Source: Apostichopus japonicus
Lineage: Eukaryota > Echinodermata > Holothuroidea > Aspidochirotida > Stichopodidae
DNA: 64,000 nucleotides
Direction: 5' to 3'
NCBI RefSeq assembly: GCF_037975245.1
Contig: NC_092568.1
Coordinates: 4,413,001 to 4,477,000, forward strand
Shown here: one piece after another, positions 15,301-62,584 of the stretch
Numbering within the stretch: the stretch's first letter is position 1
How the letters are laid out: each line of letters starts with the position of its first letter
The notes under the pieces: model-generated
Seen by the model: only the letters and a program-made list of their open reading frames with translations
What the model was told of the DNA's origin: nothing
Databases searched by the model: none
Translations under genes and position numbers: made by a program

Positions 15301-18300
15301 ATATCTCAAGAAGGTAAGCTTGGAACTATCTATTTTTGGTGTGTAGGAGTACCACAATTGAGTAGAAAAAGCATATTGTTTTGGGGAGGTCAAAGGTCAT
15401 TTGGGGTCTGCAGGGGTCAAATTGTGTACACCTTGTAAACATGATATCTCAAGAAGGGAATCTTGGACCAATCTCATATTTAGTATGTAGCTGTGAAATG
15501 TTGAGTTTAAGATCTCTATATTTCTTGCTGGAGGTCACAAAGGTCATTTGGGGTCACTAGTAGTCAAATTGTGAAAACCTTGTAAATACTTGTTTTATAA
15601 TCTACTGTATCTCCCACCTTCCAGCCTATTAGATAACATGCGTTTTGCCTCGTAAGAATCGGAGAGGCTATTTGCAAAATTTGGAAATTAGCTTAAGGGC
15701 ATCTGTAGATAGGAATCAGAAGTCTGGACCAAATCTCCATTGACTTAAGTGTGTCAATAATTTTTGCAGCTGCTATATACATCGCTGCATACATGCCTGT
15801 GCACAAAGATGTGTAATGAATGTTGTTCTGATATTCATACAACATTGCTAAATGAATGGACGATATCATTGTGAATCATCGGTATTTTATCATTGCTGCC
15901 CTTGATTTAAGTTTTCCGTCGTATTTGGCAATGGTAGAGATTCAGTGCCAAATAAAAACTTCAGGTTTGGATGTAGTAACGTTGGGGAAATGACCAGGTG
16001 TGTTTACGAAATTAATTGTCGCCTAGTTAGATGTTTTAGAGGCAAACCAGATGCTAAATCTTGGGGACCAGGGGGTAAAAATCGTCCGGCGCCTGCTTAA
16101 TGTACGGCTTGTAGGTGTACCACATTGTGTAGAAGAAGGCTGTTGTCTTTGGTAGAGATCAATCAGTATGCTGAATACAAGAACATTTTCCAGCTCGGTC
16201 ATCAGCTCCCAATGTGAATATTGTTTGTCATATCTCAATTGCTTCTTGCTGTACTACTTAGAGTAAAGTACATAGTTCATCCTGGTTATACCCTACAGTC
16301 TAGTGTGTCACATACATATAAGATTATTCATGTAGCATCATCAAAACCACACTGCAGTTTTGCCTCCGGTTTGTAGAAACGTTTTTTTTTTCTGTGGATA
16401 AAATGTTACAAAGTAAAGAAAAACAAAGACATTTTCAGCTGAAGTGCCCTGATGACATCATCCAGTCTACTGTTGCCAGATCAATAATTTCCAAATATCA
16501 CAAAATTTCATAACTTGCGCTAAAAAATTCTACTCAAGTATGTGGTTTTTGTCCAAAAGTTTCAAAAAAATGTTAAAAGCAAACTTTGCTAAGCAATCAA
16601 CCAAAAAATCCTTTTAACAAAAGTTGTGGGTTATACCTTTTTATATTGTTATAAATTCAAAAGTTTTGAGGTGCAAATTTTCATCTAGTTACAGTACATG
16701 AGGTCTTACCTATCACAATGTAATAGAAGGACGGTTTAAATTATCTTCCCATAAGTTACATTTTAGGTTAAAGAAAAATCCCAAGTAAATTAAAAATTAA
16801 AGTTTGTATGATCATGTCCCATTATATCCTGTTTTTGGTCCACCTTTGGCTAATTGTTAACAAGATTGTATTTCCAGGCCTTGCTGTTTCTTGTGCAACC
16901 CTACATTTCGAGAATGTCTGTATATGTTTCCCATAAGCAATTGCTATGCTGCTTTCTAGTTCATTAACTTTCATTAGGTACCTGTACATGAAATTTTAAT
17001 TAATTTAAAATTTAACATTCACACTTTAAACATTATAAAACAGGTAAAGGCATTGTTAAGAATGATCCCAGAGAGAGTTTTATGCTGCCTGAATCAGTGT
17101 TAGAACTATAATTCTGTAGTTTTCATATTTCATGAGTATCTATGCTATTTTCCTATCTTTTCACTGTAGAGATAATATGGTGATCTGCTACTGTATCAGT
17201 GGCTGTCCGATTCAGTGTTAGAACTATAATTCTGTAGTTTTCATATTTCATTAGCATCTATGATGTTTTCCTATCTTTTCACTGTAGAGAACAGATAATA
17301 TGGTGAGCTGCTATCAGTGGCTGTCTGATTTAGTGTTAGAACTATAATTCTGTAGTTTTCATATTTCATTAGCATCTATGATATTTTCCTATCTTTTCAC
17401 TGTAGAGAACAGATAATATGGTGAGCTGCTATCAGTGGCTGTCTGATTTAGTGTTAGAACTATAATTCTGTAGTTTTCATATTTCATTAGCATCTATGAT
17501 ATTTTCCTATCCTTTCACTGTAGATGTGATATGATGATTTGCTATCAGTGGCTGTTTAAATGCTGATTTATTATTGACCTTTAGGCTAATATATATTCTT
17601 TTGCCTGTTTTGTTACTGTAGGGCTATCAAGATAGGCAGGCTTTGTATGCTTGTAACACATGCACATCATCATCAGAGGGGACCCTGGCAGGCATCTGCC
17701 TGGCCTGTAGCTATGCTTGCCACGACGGACATGAGATGTATGAGCTGTACACTAAAAGGTAAACCATTACTCATAGACATACATATCAAACACGAATAGC
17801 TTATCATGGTGCTGTTATTTAAAGTGGATTGCATATCCTATAGAATGGCCGCACAAAGAGTAAATTGAATTCTGACAGTGATTTAGAGGGGGAACTCCAA
17901 TATTGTAAGATTTATGAAAATATTCAGAGCAATTTTTTTGGCATCAAGTTATTTGAATATTTCCCTTCATTGCTTTCAAGGTTGCTTTGTCCTCTTTTAG
18001 GTTTGCACTGTTTTGAGTGTTTTCCCCTTAATTCTGCCCTTTGCTCCTTTAACTTTGACATGTTCTCCTTCAGGTTTGCCTTGTCCTCCTTCCCTTACTC
18101 TCCCCTTCCCTCCCATTCCTTCCACCCCTTCCTTCCACCCCTTCCTTCCACCCCTTCCTCGTTTGTGTTGTTTCCATTATTCCTACTGTTTCATCCCATC
18201 CCCACAGTTACCCTCTCCCCTCCTGTTGCTCTCCTTCCCTTTTTGTGTTGTTTATCCTTCTCTTACTGCTTTGTCCCTTCCCCTCCTGTTTTCCCCTCCT

Positions 18301-30300: not shown

Positions 30301-33300
30301 GTAAGTTTTAAATTTGTCTTTAGGTCATGTCTTGATGTTATCAGCATTCACTGACAAAAAAAAAAAAAAAATAGTCTGCAAAGCGTTAAAGGGGATAGTT
30401 TAGTGACAGACAATTCAACATTTGTATCAAAAACCAAAATATGTATCTCGCTGCTAACTTCAAAATACCAAAGCAATAAACCCGCCGGTAACTCCAAATT
30501 TGTTTATAATATGAAGGTAAACTCATGTTTTGTTTTGCAAAAAAAAGCTCTTTGTTACTCTGAGAGATACATTATTTGCTCTATCTGTGATGTCATTCAT
30601 GGCAGACGCTTTGCACAAATGTTACTTGTGAAATGTGAACATGTATGAGAAGCTGTTGATGAGCTCAGCATTGAAGCCATAACTGTTTCTGCTTTAAGAT
30701 TATTTATGGTACATTGTGGATATATTCTCTTTGCATGATGAAGAAAACCGAAGCCATTTCAGCTCAATCACCATGATGATTTCACTCTCTCTGTTGCCAG
30801 ATGCATTTTGTAAAATTTGACCTCAAAGTACATTCTTTAGAGCATAGCTATCACTGTTGATCCGGAAGTTTTTGCAACAAATCTTTCCAATTTACACAAT
30901 ATACAGACGATTAGGTCAGTTTCATCAGATGCAAACTATAGTATTACTTCACAAGGAAAATAAGACTTTTGGATGGCCTCAAATAACATATGGTTACAAT
31001 GCATTACAATTTTGTCAAGAACCACTGACAAATGAATGGCTATCCAAAAGTCCTACATTTCAGTTAATTTTAATTGGAATTAATATAACAGTGGATTTCC
31101 ATAAACATTTATCCCTGCACTGAGGAGGAGTGGACATCGTTATCAAGTAGCCTTAAAGGAACATTCCAGAGATCCACCATATCATGAAACCGAATATCTT
31201 GAAAACCAGAATAGCTACAGTATAGAAACATTCAAGTTATTCTTTCCTTTGTAGATGATGACATGTGAAGGCTCATCCTTTAAGTGAAAGTAAACTTGTT
31301 ATCGTTTGTCAGAGATCTGGTTCGTGGTTGGATTAATGCTAGTAGATCATCGTCGATCTTTGTCGGCCGGGAGGAATCGAAATTAGATTAATTCAAACTT
31401 GCTCATGTGTAAAATTTGAAAGTACACTGGCATGAGACAATCTGTTTTGACATCTTAAAACAATGTTTCTTGTTGAGGAAGCATGTACTGAGAAATTCTA
31501 AGCCTATTTCTACCTTCAGGATAAAATGAAAAGGCTTTGTTTGCAAGGTTCAAATGATACAGATCTGTTTGTGTAAACTTTTTCTTTAGATAATATAGAA
31601 ACATAAGAAACAGCATTGATGTTATTTTTAATCATATGTGTTGTTTGTGATTGTAATTCATTGAGGTTACAAAGCCAACTATTTTTTTTTAAAGACTTAT
31701 CCAATCAACAGAAAGTGACATTAGTTCAATATTAATTAAAATTATTATTCTCCATTCTCAGGAAATGTACCAGAGGTTACACGTAGAGTTCCTGGTCAGA
31801 GAGGACGACACAGTCCTAGCGTACGAAGAGAGAGGCAAGCTGAATCAATCTGGTATGTCGCAATACGAGAAAGGAATTCAGGCTCTGTCTCATCTTGACC
31901 GGACACAGCAGGTGGAAGTCCTGCAAGGTATTCTTGACATGCTTATATTATCATCACTATTTACTGGAAGTTTTATGTTTGTTTGTGATATAAGACCCTG
32001 CTATTCAAAGTTGTTTGCTTGGTCACATCCAATTTTCAGCTTCATCATCATCTTGGCACCCCGACCCCCCGGCTGTGGAGTTTGTGGCTGTAAGAAAGAT
32101 TTATCCCCTTCCTCCTTTGAGCAACTTTTATCTGATAAAGGGTGCTTAGTTGCAAAATGGTGTTACAGTTTGCAACATTTGAAGTCAGTTTTTTTCAAGG
32201 TTGTCTCCATTTCTTTTCTGCTTTTTTTTTTGTGACCCCAAAAACCCTCCAAAAGACATTGAGGGACCCCTAAAATGGTCATGGTCCCCACTCTTTGAGT
32301 TGCAGAGATATAAGACTTCATTGTCATATGGCTATAAAGGACTTCACTTTGTGTTGTTATTTCAAATGTCAGGTCCTAATATAAATTGGATGAACATTAA
32401 GACTAGATATAAAGTGAAGTTCATAGTGTAATGCATAAAGCCCATCAACTTGTGTATTAATATCTCCAATTGTCACCTGCATTAGAGTTTACAATGACCA
32501 TTGAGAACCAACTACAGGCGGGGGTCTTTGAGTACTTTGTAAGTTTTTTATATATATTTTTCATCTTACATGTAATTTTGTTTTTAATACATTCTTTTCT
32601 ACCATTGACAGGATACAATGACATGAAAACCGAGCTCAGAGACTTTCTGCAGTCATTTGCTGACAAGGGAAAGGTGAATACTATTTATCTCCTTACATGA
32701 GTCTTACATATCGTGTAGATTAAGGTTGAACAACAGCGCACGTTTGCCCCAAAGAAATACTTATTTTGAATCAAGCTATGCGGCAGAATGTCAAAGAACA
32801 TACCCTGTATACCATAGATATGTAAATTCCAAGTCAGTGTTCATAAGTCGTTCATTCATCAGTCCTACATTCATTTGCTAATTCATCCATTCATTCCTTG
32901 GTCAATTGTCTGTACCAAGTGAACAGATATGTAAATTCCAAGTCATGTGTTCATTAGTTGTTCATTTATCTCTCACTTGTCCTTGTGTCAATCATCCATC
33001 AGTCCTACATTCATTTGCTAATTCTTCCATCCATCCTCTTGTCAATTGTCTGTACCAAGTGAACAGATATGTAAATTCCAAGTCATGTGTTCATTAGTTG
33101 TTCATTTATCTCTGACTTGTCCTTCTGTCAATCATCCATCAGTCCTACATTCATTTGCTAATTCATCCATTCATTCCTTGGTCAATTGTCTGTACCAAGT
33201 GAACAGATATGTAAATTCCAAGTCATGTGTTCATTAGTCGTTCATTCATCTCTGACTTGTCCTTCTGTCAATCATCCATCAGTCCTACATTCATTTGCTA

Positions 33301-34064
33301 ATTCATCCATTCATCCCTTGGTCAATTGTCTGTACCAAGTGAACAGATATGTAAATTCCAAGTCATGTGTTCATTAGTCGTTCATTCATCTCTGACTTGT
33401 CCTTCTGTCAATCATCCATCAGTCCTACATTCATTTGCTAATTCATCCATTCATTCCTTGGTCAATTGTCTGTACCAAGTGAACAGATATGTAAATTCCA
33501 AGTCATGTGTTCATTAGTCGTTCATTCATCTCTGACTTGTCCTTCTGTCAATCATCCATCAGTCCTACATTCATTTGCTAATTCATCCATTCATTCCTTG
33601 GTCAATTGTCTGTACCAAGTGAACAGATATGTAAATTCCAAGTCATGTGTTCATTAGTCGTTCATTCATCTCTGACTTGTCCTTCTGTCAATCATCCATC
33701 AGTCCTACATTCATTTGCTAATTCATCCATTCATCCCTTGGTCAATTGTCTGTACCAAGTGAACAGATATGTAAATTCCAAGTCATGGGATAATTTGCTG
33801 TTCATTTTATCTCCTTTGTCCATCTGCTTGTTCCAAATGAACATTTTTCTTCGAGCGTTTTCTCCAAATCATGTGTTCATTATTCCTTCCTTCATCTCTT
33901 TCCTGTCTGTGGAAATAAAGGGATCGGTATCCACCGTGCTAACACATTTTTTTCGCTACATTTCACCACAGGTCGTCAAAACAGAAGATATCAACAATTT
34001 CTTTGGAGAGATGCAAGCCCGGAAGAGACAAAAGACGGACTCGATGCAGTATTTTTGTCGATAG
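12206..34064 (+). CDS. UBR7: UBR7, putative E3 ubiquitin-protein ligase (12 exons, complete)
   Basis: Spliced CDS: 12206-12340, 17622-17758, 22091-22151, 23470-23565, 23992-24045, 24869-24977, 26390-26478, 29096-29248, 30055-30300, 31762-31927, 32612-32673, 33972-34064. This gives 1401 nt and 466 residues; all introns are GT-AG and all phases fit. Seen: an acidic N-terminus; a UBR-type zinc finger (about residues 41-110, ligand candidates C56, C59, C71, C74, C78, H79, H82, C95, C97, C107); a PHD-like finger (C131, C133, C151, C154, H159, H162, C179, C182); a Ser/Glu/Lys-rich linker (about 198-335); and a conserved C-terminal block ending in MQYFCR. Known of the family: UBR7 is a nuclear UBR-box protein whose PHD finger has been linked to histone H2B ubiquitination. 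Human UBR7 is about 425 residues; the extra length is in the linker. The start ATG is preceded by an in-frame TAA at 12197. The gene is convergent with the peptidase gene at 36117-49957. Ligase activity is inferred from homology. Confidence 0.97.
12748..14314. mobile_element. hAT-type element with perfect TSD GTAACAGG (UBR7 intron 1)
   Basis: Termini CAGTGTTCGATTT and AAGTCGAACACTG, flanked by GTAACAGG at 12740-12747 and 14315-14322. The interior has a G/C-rich block (13520-13610) and repeated ATATCGGCCGATA-like units (14020-14120). No intact transposase frame. Confidence 0.87.
15250..15620 (+). repeat. ~145-bp direct repeats carrying AGGTCA direct repeats
   Basis: Two and a part copies, each starting CTTGTAAAC.. 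(15288, 15432, 15579) and containing GATATCTCAAGAAG and AGGTCA pairs. A perfect DR1 lies at 15387-15399 and a DR3 at 15532-15546. A degraded further part continues near 16080-16170. Confidence 0.75.
17091..17560 (+). repeat. 118-bp tandem repeat, 4 copies (UBR7 intron 1)
   Basis: Copies begin at 17091, 17209, 17327 and 17445. Each holds TTTTCCTATC(T/C)TTTCACTGTAG, a strong acceptor-like sequence, at 17169, 17287, 17405 and 17523. The real exon 2 acceptor is at 17621. Confidence 0.92.
17622..17758 (+). CDS. UBR7: UBR7 exon 2 (UBR box, residues 46-91)
   Basis: Encodes most of the UBR box, with motifs RQALYACNTC, AGICLACSYACH and YELYTK. The acceptor is CTGTAG at 17616-17621. The donor GTAAAC splits the Arg-91 codon (phase 2). 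Confidence 0.96.
18060..18450. repeat. Long pyrimidine (C/T) tract in UBR7 intron 2
   Basis: Mostly CCTTCC-type sequence. It produces overlapping open frames on both strands that are compositional artefacts. Confidence 0.85.
19311..21525. mobile_element. Composite hAT-type element with perfect TSD TTTCTACC
   Basis: Left end CAGCGACGTAGCCAGG, right end CCTGGCTACGTCCCTG, flanked by TTTCTACC at 19303-19310 and 21526-21533. It contains a core-module copy (19387-19510) and the nested element 19623-20521. Located in UBR7 intron 2. Confidence 0.9.
19623..20521. mobile_element. Nested hAT-type element (CAAGGGCGGCGGAA family)
   Basis: Same exact inverted termini as 5222-5882, with matching first ~150 and last ~90 bp. 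AAGGTACA follows the right end (20522-20529) and also lies at 19611-19618, followed by an extra TACA that looks like slippage before the left end. An internal terminus CTGGCTACGCCCCTG ends at about 20362. Confidence 0.85.
22091..22151 (+). CDS. UBR7: UBR7 exon 3 (end of UBR box, residues 91-111)
   Basis: Encodes NFKCDCGNSKFADLTCKL, the distal zinc-binding part of the UBR box. Acceptor TTGCAG, donor GTAAGT. Confidence 0.96.
23470..23565 (+). CDS. UBR7: UBR7 exon 4 (residues 112-143, start of PHD finger)
   Basis: Encodes the conserved KYNQNFNGLYCSCKRPYPDP stretch; C131 and C133 begin the PHD-like finger. Acceptor TTTGCAG, donor GTAAGT, phase 0 at both ends. Confidence 0.96.
23992..24045 (+). 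CDS. UBR7: UBR7 exon 5 (residues 144-161, PHD core)
   Basis: An 18-codon exon encoding DDEMIQCVICEDWFHGR, which includes C151, C154, the core Trp and H159. Acceptor AAAAG, donor GTAAGT. Confidence 0.96.
24869..24977 (+). CDS. UBR7: UBR7 exon 6 (residues 162-198, PHD end)
   Basis: Starts HLGIQ, so the fourth-pair ligand is His162 where most PHD fingers have Cys (human UBR7 also has His). Ends with CTNCMTKNDFLWAY, carrying C179 and C182. Acceptor TTACAG, donor GTGAGT. Confidence 0.96.
26390..26478 (+). CDS. UBR7: UBR7 exon 7 (linker, residues 198-227)
   Basis: Low-conservation acidic linker. Phase and splice sites (ATTCCAG acceptor, GTAAAT donor) join exons 6 and 8 without a break, which is the main support. 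Confidence 0.88.
26651..26840 (+). mobile_element. Possible hAT-type fragment with CAGTGGCGTACAGG end
   Basis: A CAGTGGCG-type left end is followed by a G run, as in other copies. No matching right end or duplicated flank was found. Confidence 0.35.
27278..27900. repeat. Degenerate interspersed repeat with palindromic leader (UBR7 intron 7)
   Basis: Begins with the near-perfect palindrome AGCTCATACCAGCATGCTGG / TGTGAGCT, then phrases such as TTTCATGAAACTTGG and GGGGTCAAAGGTCA. The latter forms a DR1 at 27448-27460. It resembles the 15250-15620 repeat in style. Confidence 0.55.
28290..28420 (+). mobile_element. Possible hAT-type fragment with CAGTGGTGTGGCCAGG end
   Basis: Only the left terminus and a G run are recognisable; no right end was found. 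Confidence 0.3.
28770..28808 (+). ncRNA. Degenerate hammerhead-like RNA motif
   Basis: GCCTG (28770-28774) pairs with CAGGC (28804-28808). Inside, GATCCT pairs with AGGATT, followed by GAAACGTC. The first core strand reads CTGTGAAGA, a CTGAAGA with a 2-base insertion. Probably a dead relic from a retroelement tail. Confidence 0.4.
29096..29248 (+). CDS. UBR7: UBR7 exon 8 (linker, residues 228-278)
   Basis: Charged, Lys/Glu/Asp/Ser-rich segment, likely disordered. Acceptor TATGCAG, donor GTAAGT, phase 0 at both ends. Confidence 0.88.
30055..30300 (+). CDS. UBR7: UBR7 exon 9 (linker plus conserved motif, residues 279-360)
   Basis: A Ser/Lys/Glu-rich linker followed by the conserved family motif FWKNSWRSKLCACHSCM. 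Acceptor CTGTCGTAG, donor GTAAGT. Confidence 0.94.
31762..31927 (+). CDS. UBR7: UBR7 exon 10 (C-terminal domain, residues 361-416)
   Basis: Encodes FLVREDDTVLAYEERGK, matching the conserved C-terminal region, and a helix LDRTQQVEVLQ. Acceptor TTCTCAG, donor GTATTC; the Gly-416 codon is split. Confidence 0.95.
32612..32673 (+). CDS. UBR7: UBR7 exon 11 (residues 416-436)
   Basis: Encodes YNDMKTELRDFLQSFADKGK, a strongly conserved helix. Acceptor TTGACAG, donor GTGAAT. The following intron contains the 140-bp tandem array. Confidence 0.95.
32817..33787 (+). repeat. 140-bp tandem repeat, about 6 copies plus a partial (UBR7 intron 11)
   Basis: Near-identical units, each containing TGTACCAAGTGAACAGATAT and runs of TTCATCCATTCATTCC. 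The period is exactly 140 bp (equivalent positions 32906, 33046, 33186, 33326, 33466, 33606). The similar short open frames it generates are artefacts. The array ends about 185 bp before exon 12. Confidence 0.95.
33972..34064 (+). CDS. UBR7: UBR7 exon 12 (residues 437-466 and stop)
   Basis: Encodes VVKTEDINNFFGEMQARK and the basic, conserved terminus ending MQYFCR, then TAG at 34062-34064. Acceptor CACCACAG. Confidence 0.96.
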   Translation, partial: VVKTEDINNFFGEMQARKRQKTDSMQYFCR

Positions 34065-36351: not shown

Positions 36352-39300
36352 CTGAAATGAACAGGAGGAACAACTTGAGTGTTAACTTCTCCGGGTTGCA
36401 AATGCGCAGGCGCGCGTTGTAGACTTTCATCCGGGTACGGTCATTTGATGCTCTCATGTGAGACACATATCGTGCAGCATACCACAGTTGAGGCGATTGC
36501 CGGCTCTGATCTACCTATTCTCAGTCGTTTTCGGTGAGTGATATTATTGAGTTAAACCGTCTTGATATCGTCAAGTGTGTCCGTGACTTTCAAATAAGTG
36601 CACAGGCAAGTCCCAAATCTTATGTACCGGATCCTATGACAGGAATACGCATTCAAACTAGGGGCGAACAACTTGCGACCTACTGACTACTCAAATATTT
36701 GTCTGAAAGTCAGAATTTGAAGGGCACTCTCATCTTTCATTTATTTTCTGGATGGATGCTTAGATGTGTTCATGAGTTGCAGTGGTGTAGGAAGGTACTT
36801 TTGAGTGGGGGGAGGGGGGCTGAAGACTGATGGCCGGCCTGGGGGAGGGGTCTAAGGAGAGGGGATTCCCCCTTTGGAATTTTTTTGCATTTCCAGGTGG
36901 CCTCAGATGCAATTTGGTGCAATATAGCACACTTCAACCCACCCACTCCATTTTGTATATAATTTTGCATTTTCACCTGGCCTTAGATGCAATTTGGTGC
37001 TCCAAATGAGATTTTTTTCTCATTTGGAAATGAAAAAGGGGTTTTCTGACTTGCGAAGCGGGGGGGGGGGCGGAATGATACTTCCGCCCCTCCACATTTT
37101 TCACTGGGGGCTTGCGCCCCCCCCCCAGCCCCCGGTTCCTACGCCCTTGATGAGTTGTCAGTCCATTACAAATCTCATTCTAGTGAAATCCTCACTCTAA
37201 TAGGACCCTCATGCTTAATTGTATTGAAGCAAAAAAGAGAGAAAAGTAATTATATGCTTGATGGAATCGCCTGGTAGTAGGTTCGGTAGATAGATAGTGT
37301 ATAAGTTAAACCTCACCACGTGGCCCATACTGCACTGACGAAGAATACGAAGTTGAAACCATTGAAAGCTCATAGTTAAGGCAATTAGGGTGTTACTGAC
37401 CTGTGATAGGGTTTTCCCGGCATGCCTTGCGGTTCTATGAAAGCCCGCTCTAACAGCATTAACTGGTCATTGACAGCACGAACTGCAAACGGACTAAAAG
37501 AAATCAAAACAAAAATGGGCTTTCGTTTCTCTTGCAAATTTCGCTCTGTAGAGCTCTAAAAGGACTTAGTCTTATTCTATCAACCATTACCTTGGCAACA
37601 TGAACTGACAAAATGAAGAACAATGAAGTAAAATCAAAAGATTTCCACGTGTGGTTAAGCATCGGGGTTTAACTGTAGGTTGTTTGCTGCTAATCTGTTT
37701 CACTATAACCACAGTTACTGTAGCGGAAATGAAGTTAAGTGCAGGGAACGGCTCTTTTTATACAATATATCTTTAGTAAAATGCAATTTTACTTCAGGGG
37801 AACTAATTTCACCTAATGTTAGCTGTATTTAATTGAGTAAAATTACTTCTACTTAAGTAAAAAAGAGAGGTAAACGTTAAAACTGCTTGCCATACTCCAT
37901 ACACTCTGTTAATAAATGCCAAGCTGTGTATGCCACACTTTGCAATATCGGCATAAGCCCCTCGTTTTCCACGAAACTTTACTAAAATACAAAGATTGTC
38001 CCCAAATGAGCTTATAAATGGTCGACCGATTTCAATGGCCGTCTGTAGTTGCCTCTCTGGGTTAAGATGCTGATCAATTCGTCTTAGTTTCAAGAATTTA
38101 AATAAATGGTCAAGGTTCTTACTCGCTTTTGTCCATGTTCTCAATCCTTTTATGTAGGTCGGCTGCTGCCATTGTGAATTTTTGGAGCTGCTCGTCTATC
38201 GCAGCTGAAAGGAAAAGAATATAAACAAGTGGAATATTTGTCTCTCACACAGCTTCTCAAATTAGCCCTATAAGACCAGTCACTAAATCGTTCATGTTTT
38301 CATTTCAAATAAATGACATGAACTATATAGAAAAGCTACAAAGAAACTACGATATATTTGTCTTCGTTAAATCCTCTTGCTTTAAATGTGTTCCAAATAG
38401 GGATTGACAAACTCCTTAAATCAAGCAGAGCCGAAATACCAGGTTCAATTAACTACTGGCTTTCTACTCCCTTACGTAGTGAGTCTGATAATTACTGACA
38501 CAAATAAGACTGACTCTGTTCTGTGACTTGCATATCAACCGCCTCCACTCATCGCTATAGCCCAGCCACACCCACCACGCCCCACCCTCAACTAAAAACA
38601 GGCAATCTATGTGTGATAAGATCGATCAGATCAGATCGATAATCGGATAATATTGCTAACAATCTCACTTTACGTACCAAAAGTGATTGGCTCTGGACGA
38701 ACTGCCATTTTGTCTTCGTATAGATCTTTGAGCTGATCCACGCCTGATTTGATTCTTTCTGCGTAAGCCGAACAGTTTATAGGTACGATGTGCGCATCGG
38801 ACAATGATCGGGCAAGTTCGGCCCATACTCGTGCTAAGGCAAGGTGATACTGAAATGTAGGGTCTAATACAGCAGACACGAAGTGAAAGGTTTCGTACAT
38901 TGTGTGGTAGAGAGGGTAACTCGGCGTTCCAAGGCTCTGGAATTTTCGATGAAAACGAAATCATATAAAGAAAGGTTCATTATTTTGTTTACAATAGTTA
39001 TCGCAGTTTTTCCCCCATTAAACATGCTGCTAGACGATATCACATAACAATAATTATACCCATTGATAAGATGAGTTACCTGGGTTCTAGATACTTTTGA
39101 GGATAGGGTATAGGTCGGTAGGATAGGACAGAACATAATAGGATAGTATGGGGTGAGAAATAAGCACGATCATAAGTGGAGTGGAACGGTTTACCATATT
39201 TCGTTCATATCTGATGTCAATTGACGGGATACCTGTCACCATAATGAAAGGTCGAAAGTCACTTCCGGTTCGTATTGTCGACACTCTAAAAAGACAATAA

Positions 39301-53855: not shown

Positions 53856-54060
53856 CTATTCTCTAGCGAGGATGTCTACTTCCATGAGAGTGGTGGCAGC
53901 AGAGTCTAATGTGAAAGCGACAACAGACATGTATCTCTCAACCTCTTTCCATTGGCTCTCTGGATCCGGTTGATTTTCTATATCAAACATAAGATCAACG
54001 ATACCAGGGAACGCCACACCAGTGTAGGAGTCCTTACTGCTAGGCGCGAAAACGACATGC
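53856..54060 (-). CDS. Copy B exon 17 (C-terminus and stop)
   Basis: Encodes [40 protein letters not shown] and a terminus [10 protein letters not shown]. Ser occupies K699 of the GCPII lid and Tyr700 is kept. Confidence 0.95.
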
Positions 54061-57000
54061 CTGATTGTATAAAAAAGAACACAAGGATATAAGGTCACGG
54101 ATTCGATTCGACACACTTTAAATAATATATGCCTTTACCTTTAATTGGTTTGAACTTTTCTAGTCTCATGCCATAACGTAGCGACCGTAGAAAAGGGGCA
54201 TAAAGGCGAGAAAACAACCTAATGCTCAGTATTACGTTGGGTCCCCAAAATATTGAGTTTAAATTAGTGTAATACAAATAGTAAACTATAATTCCTTTCA
54301 ACACCATCCCTAAAATAAAGTTTCCATTCTCACAAAGACGAGAAGTTTGACGCTGTTGGAGTATATACAAAACTAATTGCACTCCTTGATTCAACAGAAA
54401 GATTACTGCATGATATAAGTTGGGCAGCTGTCATAGGACATTCTCGTATAGCCCCTCTCGCCGCCCCTCCCCTCTTACCCCGTCTTTTTACCTTTCTCGT
54501 GGTCTTCCGGGCAGACCAAGTGGGTCAATGAAGGCTCTCTCCATAAACATGAGTTGATCATTAACTGCACGGACTGCGAAAGGGCTGAAAAGTAAAATAT
54601 AAAATGAACTCAAAACAGAGCGTTAATGAAGGGCTGTATATATACGAACTACTCTTATTCTTAAAATTTTCGTGACTATTTCTTAAAACATAATTCACTA
54701 AGAATTTTTCGTATTTAAGTTCGAGAAACTGGAAATTAACAGAAAGTAGTACTTACTTTCTCTTGTCCATTTCTTCTATTCGTTCATGAAGTTGATTCGC
54801 GGCATCCGTAAACTTGTTCAAATTATCATCAATTGCATCTAAAAAAAAGTGAATTATTGAGATAAATTGTTATCTATACGCATATATTGTTCGTCACGGA
54901 GAATATTATGGCGTATATTATGTAGGCCATGTCTGTAAATCACGTCATTTTCTGAAGTTACTTAATCCGTAACAGTTAACGTTTCCTGTAAAATCATTCG
55001 TAAACCACACAGTTTTGCTTCACTATTTGAAACGTGAATAATCGATAAAAAATCATACTAAAAACCAAACATTTACTTTCTACAAAACTTTAACCGCTTT
55101 ACAAAGAAATTGAATCTGATAACAGAGACAGTCATCTTAACGCAGTACTGTATGTACGATATGTACTATATGCAGGGGCGGGTCCAGGATTTTGAGAAAG
55201 GGGGGGCCGACATCCCGATGGTAGCACTTTAGTGATCTGTGTACTGGGGGAGGGGTCTAGGGGGAGGGGTTGTCCCCCTCCCCCTTGGAAATTTTTGGTT
55301 AATTGTGAGTGCTTAGATGCAAAATGGTGAAACATTTCGCCAAAAACTAGAAAAACCAGAAACGTTGCAGACACGCTTTTTTGTGCACATATTTTTTCTC
55401 GATAGACACATATTTAACAACGCTCAACAGTGCATGTACAATGGATACACTATTATTGCGTCGATTCGTTTTTTCTTTTGCGCGAAAATTATGACACCAG
55501 ATTCACCCCAAGAAAAAACATAAAACAAGATATATTCAATGAGATAATTATGATATACTTATTGATGAAAGGGGGGTGTAGGCGGTTTTACACTATCTAA
55601 CGCAACGTAGTCGCTAAGAACCTGAAGTATTTTTAAGGGAAGGCCCGATAATAAGCGGAAACGGATCACCGTCCGAAAAAATATCGGAATTTGTGGACTA
55701 TTTCTTGCTTCCTATTGTATTAAAACAAAGCACCTATGTGAAAGACACAAATCACATTCTGAAAATTGTGGAAGCCACCCCTTTACCAAAAGCAGTAGTA
55801 CTTGCTACACTCGATGTCGTCGCCATGTATACCAATACTCCCCAAGAGGAGGCATTAGATATATGTCAAGAAGTCTATGAAAAGGCGGAATAAAGCGAAT
55901 ATGGAATAAATAAAATATCTTCCATATCCATGCGCAAACTAATTGAACTTATTTTTAACAAGAAACTGTTTCAAGTTCAATAACCAATTCTATCTACAAA
56001 AGATCGGTTGCGCCATGGGTAGCCAAGCCTCTCCGGAAATCTGTGATATCGTCATGCATAGACTGGAAAACCAGATTTTACCGACAGATAATAAAATCTT
56101 AAAATGGCTCCGCTATAGAGATGAAATTCTATTGCTTTACGACGGTTCACCTCAGGAACTTGAACAACTAGTAAACAGGTTGAATGAAATTCACCGCTTC
56201 TTAAAGTTTACGGTAGAAATATTACACACCGAGGTAACATACCTAGATTTGAAAATCTTCAAAGGTCCAAGGTTTGAAACCAATGGGTTATTAGACACCA
56301 AAGTCTACACCAAACCCACGGAAACCTTCCAATACCTCGACAGAAACTCTGCACACCCACTTGCCACTTTTAAAGGCTTCATTAAAGGGGAAGTCTTACG
56401 ATACGCACGTCTCTGTAACAATGAGACTGATTTCTTACAGAAAAAGAATGCGTTCACAGAGAAACTGTTACTCCGTAACTATAAGAAAGAGGAAATTGCC
56501 TTAGCCACGAAAGGCATAAAATTTGAAAACCGTGGGCAATACCTCACTACCAAACCTAAACAAAAGGAACCACCAATGGTGTTCAAGCTTACCTATACAC
56601 CCCATATCAAAACCACGCATTTGAAAAATGTACTTTTGAAACATTGGCACTTAATCTCGCAACACGCGGTCAGGGGCGTAGCGAAGTTTTTTTTGTTGGG
56701 GGGGGGGGTATGGAGGATTAGATTTTCCGACGGATCTGGATGTGGTGACTGAAATGGGGGAGGGGTCTAAGGGGAGGGGGTGTCCCCCTCCCCTTTGGAA
56801 AATTTTTATTTTTGAAACGCCCTTAGATGCAGTCTGGTGCTTATTTTAAGTCAAATTTGGCACCGTAGAATTTCCATTTCGATATTATTTTTATGGCAGT
56901 CGGCAGAAGAAGAATTAATTGGGACCAATTATCGAACTGTGTTTTCTCTTTCACCGATCGTTGAAATAGTGAAACTTCGTGATGAAAATGTTCAGAAGAC

Positions 57001-58893
57001 TTTCCGGTAATGAGAAATAACAACATTCATTGATATACAAGCGAGAAACGTTAAAAATTGTGTACAATTCGTGAGCCGTGTCCTTAAGTTTTCCACGGAG
57101 AACGAATGACATCTGCGATGACGTCATTCTGAACAGCGGATAATAACAACACGTTGTCACACGATAGCACGACTCATGGGCTGCGGCCTATACGGAAGCC
57201 TTTAATTCCATTTCTTTCACTGAGTTGCCGGCAAATCTGGCACTCGTCTAGCTGAGCCTGGCTACAGTATAGCTATACTGACGGCCGTGACATTATCAGT
57301 TATTTGCCGAGAGGTTTTTAACTTGCAGGCGTCGGGTGATTGGATTGGTGAATGAGTTTATCAGATGAATAACTGGAAAATCGAAATAACCGATAAAGAA
57401 GCTCCCGTTCTCCTTTTCTCTATTCAGCTTTCCTTCTTTCTTCCCCTTCCGCTCTCTTCACCTTTTCTCCTTTTGCCGACAGACCCAAAATTTGCCGACA
57501 GCGACCAAATTATTGGGGGGTGTGACACCCCCACACCCCCCCCCCGCTCGCTACGCCCCTGCACGCGGAATTATCCAAACTGTTTCCAAAAGAACCGATT
57601 CTAGCCTACAAAAGGGCCCCAAATCTCAAAGATTTACTTGTTAACTCAAGGTTTCATACTAACGAAGAATCAGCTGACTCTCAAGGTTCACACGAAGCTC
57701 TTTTAGATGCTCTTATATCTGCACTATGAGTCCATAAAAACTCGTGCACAGAAAATAGATGCATTTTGAGAACGAGACGCCCAGGCCGAATATAAAAAAT
57801 TCAAAGGCTACTACTGATGAAGCTCCTCCTATAAAGTTTGAGAGCAGAAACCGGTCTAGTTGGTCATAAGAACCTACACTAGTCTCTCCTACTATTAACA
57901 GTACACTCAATTCACCTAATAGGTGCAATTATGTTTCACCACGAGGAGCATGCTATAAGTTCATGTTCCTCGGGCCCTCCCTTAAAAATACTTCAGGTTA
58001 TTGGCGACTACGTTGCGTTAGATAGTGTAAAACCGCCTACACCCCCTTTCATTCAGATAATTATGATATACTTGCTAACTGTGCATTGATTTTCCCTGAC
58101 AGTAATAGTCAGCACTATAGTACTGAGCCGTATCTAATTAATACGTGATGTCGCGTAGGCCTGATAATTGCCTTAGTTTCAAATTTGGAATAAAAACGAT
58201 CGCGTTTCAGGAAAGAGCAGCTGGATATATATTAGGCTTTTCTTTCACCAAGTTATGCCTATTAGGAATTTGAAGTACTCCCACATAAAAAAAACGCAAC
58301 TGATTTCCAAAAAGGGGGGGCCGGGGCCGGGTCGGCCCCCCTGGATCCGCCCCTGACTATATGTACGATATGTACTGCTCTGCTCTGTTCTTCGTCGTCT
58401 GTGTTTTGCTCACCGAATGTAATCGGATTGGGTCGTGCAGCCATTTTAGCTTCGTAATTCGTCTTCAGCACGGTAACCGATGATCTCATACGTTCCGCAT
58501 AAGCCTTACAATTAATCGGGATTATCAGACTATCCGACAAAGCTAGAGCGATCTCTGCCCAAACACGGCCAACCACCAGATGGTGTTCAAAGGTCGGATC
58601 CATTATGGCAGACATGAGATGAAATGTCTCGTACATCGAATGGTAGAGAGGGTAACTGGATAATCCTAGGCTCTGAATTTAGAGAGATTAAAAATCAAAA
58701 GTTTTAATTAGTAAAATTATGACAAAGATATATGATGAAGAAACGTTTACAACTATAATAAACTTGAGGTAGTGGTTGGTTAGTCTTGACGTATTTTTTT
58801 GTCAATCTGAGAAATCTTTAAGTGCCAGCAGGAGGTGAAATCTGTTGCTTAATTCCTTTTGTTGTTGTTTTCCTTTCATATTTGTAACTTCTG

Positions 58894-58953
<60 letters not shown>

Positions 58954-61900
58954 CAACTATTCTGTCCCGATTCCTAAATGCAAATTGCCATCATGATAGT
59001 TTACTAAACTTACTTATCCCTCCCCACCCCTACCTCCTTTAAATTGATTGAACGACTGCCTAAAGGGCCTTTTGATCATAATGGCAGTCTTTAGTTTATA
59101 AGGCGTTTATACTTTAAAGTGCATATACGTACGGAGTCCCTCGTGTATCTGATGTCGATAGCTGGTATACCAACGAGTCCAATAAATGGTCGGAAATCAC
59201 TTCCGGAACCTAAATCTGGTGTCCTGCAGAATAAGGAACAGATTAATGAAGAGCAAATATTTTTCTGATGAAACAATACACATGACACGTGACCTTAACT
59301 TTGTGCTTATATCTGAAACATTAACAAGAAGGTTAAATAAATATTTTCCTAACTAATTATAAGGTGTCTTTAATTCACATTAACGGTACTATAGGCAGCG
59401 ATACCGTTCGCCATTTTGTAACAATACCGTGGTAGATTGGACCCTTCGCTTGGTGTTTTCTCCAACCAGTTATTATACAGAATTCCACCATGATTCGACG
59501 CATCTGAAACCTGTTAATATAGAGATGTATATACCCTTATAATTGTTAAACGTTCTCAGGGGGTACGTAACCACTTTACCACTCCATACATGTATGTACC
59601 AACATATTATCATTATTATACACTTCATATTATTGCAGGGTGTCTCTAACTTTATCCCCCCACGAACCCCCTGTGGATGTCAGAGTTGTCCACGAACCCC
59701 CAACTTTTCGAGACACGATCTGAGTCCTTATTATACTATAATACGCATAACAGTGCTTCGTAAAAGATCAAGTTCATAGTGTAATATTGTAATGAAAAAA
59801 CACAAGAGATGAAAATATTTATCTGGAAACTTCAAGATCAGATCAGCTCTTTATCTTCACGAAGTACTGTCATGCATTCACCAACTTCACCATAGTCATG
59901 CGGCCGGTGTCTGTTCATAATTCAGTTATTTATCACATGCACGGTACGGTACTACTATTGCAACGTATATGTATGGAAAGAGAAAAGAGGTACGACTTTT
60001 GTACATTACTAAATTATATCAGATTTTAGTACAACAAGAAGTACTCTAGTTTTGACTTTCAGAAACGTCTCACGAACCCCCTAGGATGGACTCACGCACC
60101 CCATGAGGGTTCATGTACCCCAATTAGGGGAACTTAGGGAATCCCTGTATTATTGTCTTGAATAATGTAGGTACGAAATAAATTTAATATTTGAGAACCA
60201 GAGAACATCTTAGAAAATGGTTAAAGTATACTACAGTTTGCCCCATATTCAGTGCATTTTGTTGTGTGACATAATCTCATTCAAAATGTGTTGAAATCTT
60301 TGAAAAGGCTCTTTTCGTTTCCAAGACATACACATTTGGGAAATTTAATAAATCTCGGAAACTCGTTAAATATGTGCAAATTATAACATGGAGTGTTGCA
60401 CTCACTAAAATCTCTTGTGTTAGGCTATAATAAGTTAACTCCTAATCACAAACCCACAATAATATGATGTTCCTCTTTTCAAAGAAGACACCTTTTATAG
60501 GCCACAAACTTGTGATTAGTGTCCTTGAAAGAAGGTTGTAAAAACAAAGGAATAACATAACAGAAAATTAGGCAGTCACTCCCTTTACATCACCAATATA
60601 CATAATTAGCTAATGTTGATTCATGAATAACACTAGAATTAAGAAAAGACTTTAAAAATGGTCAATCTTTGATGGATTTTGATAGGAGTTGCAGCTATTT
60701 TTATGATTTCTAATGCCTTTTAGAGTGATTAGGACGATGTTGTTCATAGGTGTCCGTAGACCTTTAACTTGGAAGTAAAAGCAGTACTTCTCAGTCCATA
60801 GTTTAAACTTGATTCACTCAGAAATTGAAGAATACAGATTGAATGATTGTAATGAAATTAATTTAAAAAAAAAAGAAGAAAAAAAAGAGGTACAAAATTG
60901 TCAATATCACTTACTTTCTTTGTAGCTTCGAAAAGTACATCAAAATAGTTGGGGGTTGAGCGGCCTTGAAAGGTGTAATTGCCACTTACTGCACTATCAC
61001 AATTAACATAGGCAACGGTTCGCTCACCAATCGTCTTCGAGAATTCCTAAAATAAAAACCGACCATCAACAGTATAAGACACGAATCCAAATTTCAGTAT
61101 ACGTACACTATTCGGAGCCGTTGGACATAGGAGTCGCGGGGTTTGGAAAGGAGGGCCGGATGAGGGGAGGGTGGGGGGGGGGGGTAAAGTACTTCCTCGA
61201 CCTCTTGTAGAAATAGCTCAACCAATAGCATAACCCTCTTGTAAGCTCGAACAGCTATACTGTATTCTGTTACCGTTTGGCGATGAAACATATTTTTATT
61301 CCAGCGAGAAGAGTAAAAATAATGCAGAAAGATTTTTAAAACAAATAACACTTTATGTGCAAACCTATTTTCATTTGTTAAAATTTTAAGTCAATCAAAG
61401 TATATTAAATATGCTTATCTTATACAAAAGATAAGAACAATTTTCCCCACCTATATACTACCCATCAGGCACCTGGCGTCCGGTGAGATATGATCACTGT
61501 ACAGTGTATATGTCTGCTCACGTGCAAGTTAATATCTTGGGCAATGCCTTGTTAATTATCAGAATGATAGACTGTACACATTGTTTACCTCAACCCATTC
61601 ATAAGAACCCATCAGGCCGTATTCTTCCGCTCCCCAACTGGCAAATACAATAGATCTTCGAGGCCGCCATTTACCTGTAACAGAGTCAATGTATCGACAA
61701 TATCAGCAAGTGTCGTAAAGCGGGCGGGGATGGGACTGAGAAAGGGAGGGAGAAGGGGGAGGGAGAAGGGGAGGGAAATATTAATAAAAAGCAAAGCTTT
61801 GGTAGTATAATATTCGTTTATTGCATAGCTGGTCATTTACAATTTACCGGAAGATATACGATTTCATTTCTTCTTTTTTCCTTTTTTCTGTTTTCTTTAG

Positions 61901-62329: not shown

Positions 62330-62584
62330 TATTAAAATCGTAATGAGTTGGAAAATCAACAACAGTGAAAAAACTTCCAGCCTCCACCGGGATTCGAACC
62401 CGGGCCTCCCGCTTTGTACGCGGACACCCTAACCAACTAGGCCATGGACGCTGATTGTATGTCCAGAGGTTCGAAACCGGTAAGGAAGGTCGTAATTCCA
62501 CTGTAGGCGTTTGACACCTGTATCGAACAATACTAGTTCTGTTTTTGGTGACATATTTTGCCTTACTCCAGAGATCAAACATGA

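What the first reader, a model, noticed from the sequence alone, without database searches (positions are those of the whole stretch)
55173..58355. Four-level nest: intron, hAT element, Penelope-like retroelement, second hAT element
The boundaries of each layer can be read directly. The outer element has ends CAGGGGCGG... and TSD ACTATATG. The retroelement has ~85-bp inverted ends and a 19-bp direct repeat. The inner element has exact CAGGGGCGTAGCG ends and a 7/8 TSD, and cuts the RT gene. This gives a strict order of insertion inside copy B intron 14.
Basis: partly seen in the sequence, partly recalled or inferred. Interest (0 to 1): 0.75.

Follow-up and report, generated by a model that had tools for sequence, protein, structure and literature searches.

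The report
Transposon nest that spreads whole
A "jumping gene" sitting inside a gene holds a broken retroelement, which itself holds a second jumping gene, and this whole three-part package turns out to be a repeat found at many places in the genome, so the nest was built elsewhere and arrived in the gene as one piece.

Summary
The layers and boundaries are real: outer hAT-like element 55173-58355 with TSD ACTATATG; 5'-truncated Penelope-like (PLE) copy with ~80-bp inverted ends and a 19-bp direct repeat; inner hAT-like element 56671-57561 cutting the RT.

The nest was not assembled in this intron. The window's genome holds it repeatedly: in 39 of 39 other outer copies fetched the PLE sits at the same junction, and 37 of 39 show the inner element. 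Flanks are unrelated and 27 of 29 readable other copies have an exact 5-bp TSD. The layers diverge alike between copies (about 2%). So a non-autonomous hAT-type element with a dead retroelement and a second hAT as cargo spreads as one unit.

Intermediates fix the order outer, PLE, inner: PLE copies without the inner element (40 of 40 scored); L079, and by its right junction L096, are outer+PLE without inner. A five-layer version also spread. The same PLE also abuts the end of a second hAT family (6 of 18 junctions).

Unexplained: the window copy's 8-bp TSD.

The parts
54839..58413 (-). Host intron (GTGAGC..TTTTAG) of a glutamate carboxypeptidase II/III-like gene
   Evidence: Splice sites and length by script; coding stretches 58400-58678 and 53859-54134 match GCPII/III chains in the PDB
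55165..55172 (.). Outer target-site duplication, left copy ACTATATG
55173..58355 (.). Outer hAT-type element, 3183 bp here; 670 bp of its own sequence once PLE layer and one direct repeat are set aside
   Evidence: Terminal inverted repeats; 39 other copies fetched, found by the left arm; identity inside left end 0.991, outside 0.28
55542..55560 (.). Left copy of 19-bp direct repeat, TSD of the PLE insertion
55565..58052 (+). Penelope-like retroelement copy, 5'-truncated, interrupted by inner element; filler ATTG (55561-55564) and TC (58053-58054) between it and the direct repeats
   Evidence: 3' end ...CCCCCTTTCA(T) followed by unrelated flanks in other copies; RVT_1 match in window piece, just under the curated cut-off
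55569..55648 (-). Inverted copy of the PLE 3' end fused to the truncated RT; 4-bp microhomology CCGA at the junction
   Evidence: 95% complementary to 57970-58049; junction compared with free PLE copy L078
55649..56670 (+). RT coding remnant, left part; YRDE where free copy L078 has YRDD
56663..56670 (.). Inner TSD, left copy CACGCGGT
56671..57561 (.). Inner hAT-type element, 891 bp, ends CAGGGGCGTAGCGA; longest frame wholly inside 78 aa
   Evidence: a second insertion of the same family in L009 with its own 8-bp TSD CCACGAGG
57562..57569 (.). Inner TSD, right copy CACGCGGA
57562..57729 (+). RT coding remnant, right part, to the stop; no GIY-YIG domain detected
   Evidence: no Pfam match for window 57526-57729
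57970..58049 (+). PLE 3' end, partner of the inverted arm
58055..58073 (.). Right copy of 19-bp direct repeat
58356..58363 (.). Outer target-site duplication, right copy ACTATATG

Best explanation
The thing in the intron is one copy of a dispersed, non-autonomous hAT-type transposon family that carries a dead nest as cargo and moves it whole. Steps: (1) a short (about 670 bp) hAT-type element, whose family makes 5-bp TSDs, existed [inferred; no PLE-free copy was found]. (2) A Penelope-like copy landed in it, 5'-truncated, with an inverted copy of its 3' end joined by a 4-bp microhomology and a 19-bp TSD [shown by anatomy]. Its catalytic motif reads YRDE in nest copies and YRDD in the one free copy examined for it, so it was probably dead when it began to spread. 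(3) Outer+PLE moved as a unit (L079, L096) [shown for one copy with both ends, one by right junction]. (4) A second hAT-type element with 8-bp TSDs inserted into the RT of one such copy [shown]. (5) The outer+PLE+inner unit multiplied; subfamilies with deletions, tandem arrays and further inserts also multiplied [shown]. (6) One copy landed in this intron [that it is there is shown; that it came as a finished unit is inferred from the other copies]. The ends used are the outer hAT-type ends; the transposase acts in trans from another hAT element [inferred; hAT transposase domains abound, but none was linked to these ends].
For: Left-arm search: 40 places scored of 733 candidates, 97-100%. In 39 of 39 other copies fetched the PLE starts 0-16 bp after the left arm, and 37 of 39 have an inner-element match of 250 bp or more. 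From the right arm, 29 of 30 fetched loci (window included) show PLE and inner sequence next to it; the exception, L061, is N on its left. 82 distinct places on 23 contigs over three searches, merged within 10 kb and counted by arm or junction, not each read whole. Exact 5-bp TSD in 27 of 29 other copies with both ends readable. Sequence alike inside the left end (0.991) and unlike outside (0.28), 39 copies, window included. Mean pairwise K2P: outL 0.020, pleL 0.022, inner 0.026, pleR 0.018, outR 0.025, 21 copies. Distances of layers correlate across copies: Mantel r 0.51, 0.47, 0.73, at most 1 of 4999 permutations as high. Intermediates: (40 of 40 scored contiguous over the inner site), L078 and L079, L096. 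Five-layer set. 150 hAT dimerisation-domain matches scored of 633 candidates, all 150 over the cut-off, some in open frames above 700 aa.
Against: No autonomous hAT with these ends was identified. No copy of the outer element without PLE was found: of 40 scored of 410 candidates, only L061 spans the join, and it is a deletion derivative that keeps bases of the PLE right end, with N to its left. The window copy itself has an 8-bp TSD while its family has 5 bp; L030 and L045 also lack an exact 5-bp match, and 10 of 40 copies were not readable at both ends. Copies were chosen by similarity to this copy's arms, which biases against diverged or empty relatives. L015 and L029 show no inner sequence in the stretch fetched. 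No allele or species without the insertion could be examined: the flank is single-copy in this assembly apart from weak matches.
Confidence: 0.93

Rival explanations
1. One reading: each layer inserted one after another inside this intron.
For: The layers are cleanly nested in that order.
Against: The same three-layer unit with the same inner junctions lies at dozens of unrelated sites with their own TSDs. Identical inner junctions cannot arise independently that often.
Confidence: 0.03
2. The copies arose by segmental duplication or gene conversion, not by hAT transposition.
For: High identity between copies (up to 99.87%).
Against: Similarity stops at the terminal inverted repeats; flanks are unrelated; 27 of 29 other readable copies have exact 5-bp TSDs.
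Confidence: 0.02
3. Copies without the inner element lost it by excision and are not earlier stages.
For: hAT elements do excise (recalled), and L079 carries a substitution at the site (CAACCCGCGG).
Against: L079 has no length change at the site and only one TSD copy. 17 of 20 examined innerless PLE copies lie outside the outer element by their right junction: 11 free or tandem, 6 next to another hAT tail.
Confidence: 0.12
4. The outer family makes 8-bp TSDs and the 5-bp reading is an artefact of misplaced ends.
For: The window copy shows a perfect 8-bp TSD, and hAT elements usually make 8 bp (PMC12730594, passage seen).
Against: 27 of 29 other readable copies match for exactly 5 bp and not more with the ends placed at CAG..CTG.
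Confidence: 0.03

Closest known systems
hAT5 group of hAT DNA transposons (5-bp TSD)
   Same: CAG..CTG type ends and 5-bp TSD in 27 of 29 other readable copies. [quoted passage not shown]
   Different: No transposase in the element, so descent was not tested; the window copy has 8 bp; it carries retroelement and hAT cargo.
Non-autonomous hAT elements / MITEs
   Same: Inverted ends, TSD, no transposase, many near-identical copies.
   Different: At 3.2 kb most of its length is foreign nested DNA that is copied with it.
Penelope-like elements with inverted pLTR ends
   Same: RT with PLE-like order of motifs (recalled), inverted terminal repeat, 5' truncation and TSD. PMC3846280 (passages seen) describes 5'-truncated Penelope copies flanked by inverted pLTRs and microhomology at a 5' junction.
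   Different: TSD 19 bp against the 8-10 bp in the passages seen; no GIY-YIG domain seen; multiplied as cargo of another element.
8-bp TSD hAT non-autonomous elements with CAGGGGCGTAGCG ends (inner layer)
   Same: CAG..CTG ends and 8-bp TSD; a further independent insertion of the family seen in L009.
   Different: Also copied passively as part of the outer unit.

Membership tests
hAT superfamily, hAT5 group (outer element) | 5-bp target-site duplication | tested here: met
   27 of 29 other copies with both ends readable; the window copy does not (8 bp)
hAT superfamily, hAT5 group (outer element) | Terminal inverted repeats starting CAG | tested here: met
   CAGGGGCGG[AG]TCCAGG at both ends of the window copy
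hAT superfamily, hAT5 group (outer element) | hAT transposase of the hAT5 lineage, in the element or in a partner with the same ends | not tested
   No transposase seen in the element; hAT dimerisation domains abound in the genome but none was linked to these ends
hAT superfamily (inner element) | 8-bp TSD and CAG..CTG ends | tested here: met
   CACGCGGA on both sides in 19 of 24 other copies with both junctions readable (window 7 of 8); L009 second insertion CCACGAGG
hAT superfamily (inner element) | Transposase | not tested
   Element is 891 bp, longest frame wholly inside 78 aa; no partner sought
Penelope-like retroelements | Reverse transcriptase | tested here: met
   RVT_1 28.2 bits in window piece (cut-off 29.6, just below); 37.7 bits in free copy L078, above cut-off
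Penelope-like retroelements | RT branches with PLE / telomerase RTs | not tested
   No reference PLE sequences at hand; the motif resemblance (LPKIHK..GRPIISG..YRDD) is recalled
Penelope-like retroelements | GIY-YIG endonuclease (EN-bearing branch) | tested here: inconclusive
   No GIY-YIG match in the window C-terminal piece or in three L078 pieces, but the copies are damaged and no intact one was seen
Penelope-like retroelements | Inverted or direct pLTR-like ends with TSD | tested here: met
   80-nt inverted ends, 19-bp direct repeat; one tandem junction in L085

The most novel reading that the evidence does not exclude
In this genome a Penelope-like retroelement spreads to a large extent as DNA-transposon cargo: it was captured at least twice by different hAT families. 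The first is the outer element of the nest. The second is a hAT whose 3' tail lies 78 bp after a hAT dimerisation domain at five places. Capture may even have helped the outer family multiply, since no PLE-free version was found among the 40 places scored. A retroelement family would then have changed from copy-by-RNA to copy-by-transposase.
Probability: 0.3. Interest if true: 0.65.

Novelty: new variant of a known kind. Interest (0 to 1): 0.5.

Why it matters
It shows that a nest read at one locus need not record the history of that locus: the nest can be a mobile unit with its own family tree. Intermediates, including outer+PLE without the inner element and a five-layer version that spread in turn, make it a natural series for asking how much cargo a non-autonomous hAT tolerates, and how dead retroelements keep multiplying through another element's machinery. 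Repeat-annotation programs would be likely to split such a unit into three families and misjudge copy number, age and activity of each (inference, not tested).

Tried and rejected
Sequential insertion in the intron: rejected. Empty site by comparison with gene copy A or another copy of the locus: not possible. A search with 58364-58860 found the window itself, 201 bases at 68% at the place of gene copy A (window about 38745-38945), and one 81-base match at 75%. PLE-free outer element: sought with a joined query; only L061 of 40 scored spanned the join, a deletion derivative with N to its left. Hammerhead ribozyme or other RNA in the PLE ends: nothing credible in Rfam at E up to 5; the two matches listed (a CRISPR repeat model and ceN80) lie far below gathering scores. 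Relatives of the RT in viral contigs: none confirmed. RT against PDB sequences: only weak matches. Source transposase: 150 hAT domain matches scored, none linked to the outer ends. Second hAT context: right side ends at CGGCCCTG in the two copies compared, but the left side of the one copy read (L100) shows a PLE truncated near window 56446 after sequence I did not identify (no transposase recognised; a 30-base match to the inner element lies about 120 bases upstream), so that context is not proved to be a unit bounded by two hAT ends. Prior nests of this kind: paper searches listed nothing; one listed 3 papers and 61 listed 12 of 13, judged by title and start of abstract only, apart from passages of PMC8576890, which held nothing of the kind. 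These were narrow phrase searches of open-access papers, so this is weak evidence of novelty.
Full report
WHAT IS IN THE WINDOW. Reading 54600-59000 and the repeat search confirm each boundary. The outer element runs 55173-58355 with CAGGGGCGG[GA]TCCAGG ends and ACTATATG on both sides. Inside it lies a Penelope-like copy, 55565-58052, with 80-nt inverted ends (95% complementary) between two copies of a 19-bp direct repeat. Inside that lies a second hAT-type element, 56671-57561, with ends CAGGGGCGTAGCGA and TSD CACGCGGT/CACGCGGA, which cuts the RT. The host intron is 54839-58413 on the minus strand, GT..AG, 3575 bp, 384 bp without the element. Coding stretches 58400-58678 (next to the intron) and 53859-54134 (further downstream in the gene) match glutamate carboxypeptidase II/III.

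THE NEST IS A REPEAT. The window lies in a held genome of 671.6 Mb. A search with the left 388 bp of the outer element scored 40 places of 733 candidates, 97-100% identical. I fetched the 39 others with flanks. In 39 of 39 the PLE starts 0-16 bp after the left arm, and 37 of 39 have an inner-element match of at least 250 bp; L015 and L029 have none in the stretch fetched. Several copies are internally deleted or carry further inserts. A search with the right arm scored 40 of 352 candidates; of 30 loci fetched, window included, 29 show PLE and inner sequence and one, L061, has N in 1409 of its bases, on the left. Over three searches the places merge (within 10 kb) to 82 on 23 contigs. These were counted by arm or junction; not every one was read whole.

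IT MOVES BY THE OUTER ENDS. Sequence just inside the left end is 0.991 identical on average and 0.28 just outside, beyond the TSD (39 copies, window included). On the right it is 0.827 inside and 0.273 outside (31 copies). Of 30 copies with both ends readable, window included, 27 have an exact TSD of 5 bp, L030 and L045 have none exact, and the window has 8 bp; 10 of the 40 were not readable at both ends. Two further 5-bp TSDs were read by eye: L009 with L054, GTCTT, and L079, TTTTT, the latter weak since it is a homopolymer. A 5-bp TSD marks the hAT5 group according to PMC12730594 (passages seen).

THE LAYERS TRAVELLED TOGETHER. In an alignment of 21 copies (20 of the 39, the nearly complete ones, plus the window) mean pairwise K2P is 0.0195 outL, 0.0218 pleL, 0.0261 inner, 0.0182 pleR, 0.0252 outR. 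Distances correlate between layers: Mantel r 0.512 outer-PLE (1 of 4999 permutations as high), 0.472 outer-inner (0), 0.733 PLE-inner (0). The tree has 18 inner branches, 8 well supported and 9 open; the window groups with L010 (97/93). The closest pair, L032/L046, differs by 0.13%. No dates are given because no mutation rate is known for this genome.

ORDER OF EVENTS. The RT around the inner element, joined across it with one TSD copy, matches without a break in 40 of 40 scored places (511 candidates) at 94-98%. I examined 20 of those 40. L078 is a PLE outside the outer element, itself frameshifted and with an inverted head. L079 is outer+PLE without inner, bounded by TTTTT, with two other hAT-like inserts. 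Right junctions of 18 more: 9 unrelated flanks, 1 tandem PLE (L085), 6 with one shared flank, 1 in the outer element (L096), 1 unresolved (L081). The nest copies share YRDE at the catalytic motif: of 21 rows, 18 have the identical stretch, one has it after a 2-base insertion, one has a gap there and one reads AGAAGAAC. L079 also reads GATGAA, while L078 reads GATGAC, YRDD. The fusion of the inverted 3' end to the RT shares CCGA with both sources. So the founder was one 5'-truncated insertion, probably inactive from the start.

FURTHER LAYERS. L023 and L036 share a ~370-bp insert in the inner element at window 57033 with TSD TTCATTGA, and their outer TSDs differ (TATAC, TAAAG); L020 shares its left junction, with a longer insert. 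A five-layer version therefore spread too. Inserts with their own TSDs, each seen in one of the 39 copies, lie in L011, L012, L021 and L024, and a second inner-family element in L009. Eight right-arm loci (L051, L053, L056, L064, L066, L071, L073, L075) show a repeated stretch of inner positions from about 47 to 189.

A SECOND hAT CONTEXT. The flank shared by six PLE copies was scored in 40 places of 160 candidates. In five of these 40 it begins 78 bp after a hAT dimerisation domain listed. In two copies compared it runs 309 bp at 96% identity and stops at CGGCCCTG. It is therefore probably the tail of another hAT family, and the PLE abuts it. In the one copy whose left side was read (L100), the PLE is truncated near window 56446 and the left neighbour was not identified, so a second complete composite is probable, not proved.

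WHAT IS NOT KNOWN. No PLE-free outer element and no autonomous partner were found. The window copy's 8-bp TSD stands alone among the 30 readable copies. Its flanks hold a 21-bp near-repeat, so the site itself is repetitive, but no 5-bp reading fits. The flank is single-copy in the assembly apart from weak matches, so no empty allele could be read. The assignment of the retroelement to PLE rests on an RT match, structure and recalled motifs; no tree with reference PLEs was possible.

VERDICT. The nest is real and its internal order stands, but it is a mobile, multicopy unit that arrived in the intron complete. Known kind (nested, non-autonomous hAT elements), unusual variant.

Noticed in passing
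55165-55172 and 58356-58363: The window copy has an exact 8-bp TSD while 27 of 29 other readable copies have exactly 5 bp; L030 shows a 7-bp near-match at a similar ACTATAT site.
   Followed up: partly
L086:78-181, L098, L099: The same PLE family abuts a 309-bp tail ending in CGGCCCTG, probably of another hAT family; at five of 40 scored places that tail lies 78 bp after a hAT dimerisation domain.
   Followed up: partly
L020, L023, L036 (at window 57033): An extra hAT-like insert inside the inner element, shared in full by L023 and L036 and by its left junction in L020: a five-layer version of the nest that spread.
   Followed up: partly
L051, L053, L056, L064, L066, L071, L073, L075: Repeated stretch of inner-element positions of about 47-189, a tandem-array subfamily of the nest.
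   Followed up: no
C7:9747129, C7:9836554, C7:9878765 and C1:1198075 in G000: hAT dimerisation-domain matches with equal scores, each in an open frame of 804 aa, at four places: candidates for a recently active hAT family.
   Followed up: no
window 32852-33787: Tandem array of a 140-bp unit, 6.7 copies, 97% matches.
   Followed up: no
window 17084-17524: Tandem array of a 118-bp unit, 3.7 copies.
   Followed up: no
window 62379-62451, minus strand: tRNA model match, 54 bits, near AT microsatellites; gene or tRNA-derived repeat not decided.
   Followed up: no
window 36839-36920: Weak matches (75-81%) to the subterminal motif shared by outer and inner elements, perhaps another hAT-type remnant.
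   Followed up: no
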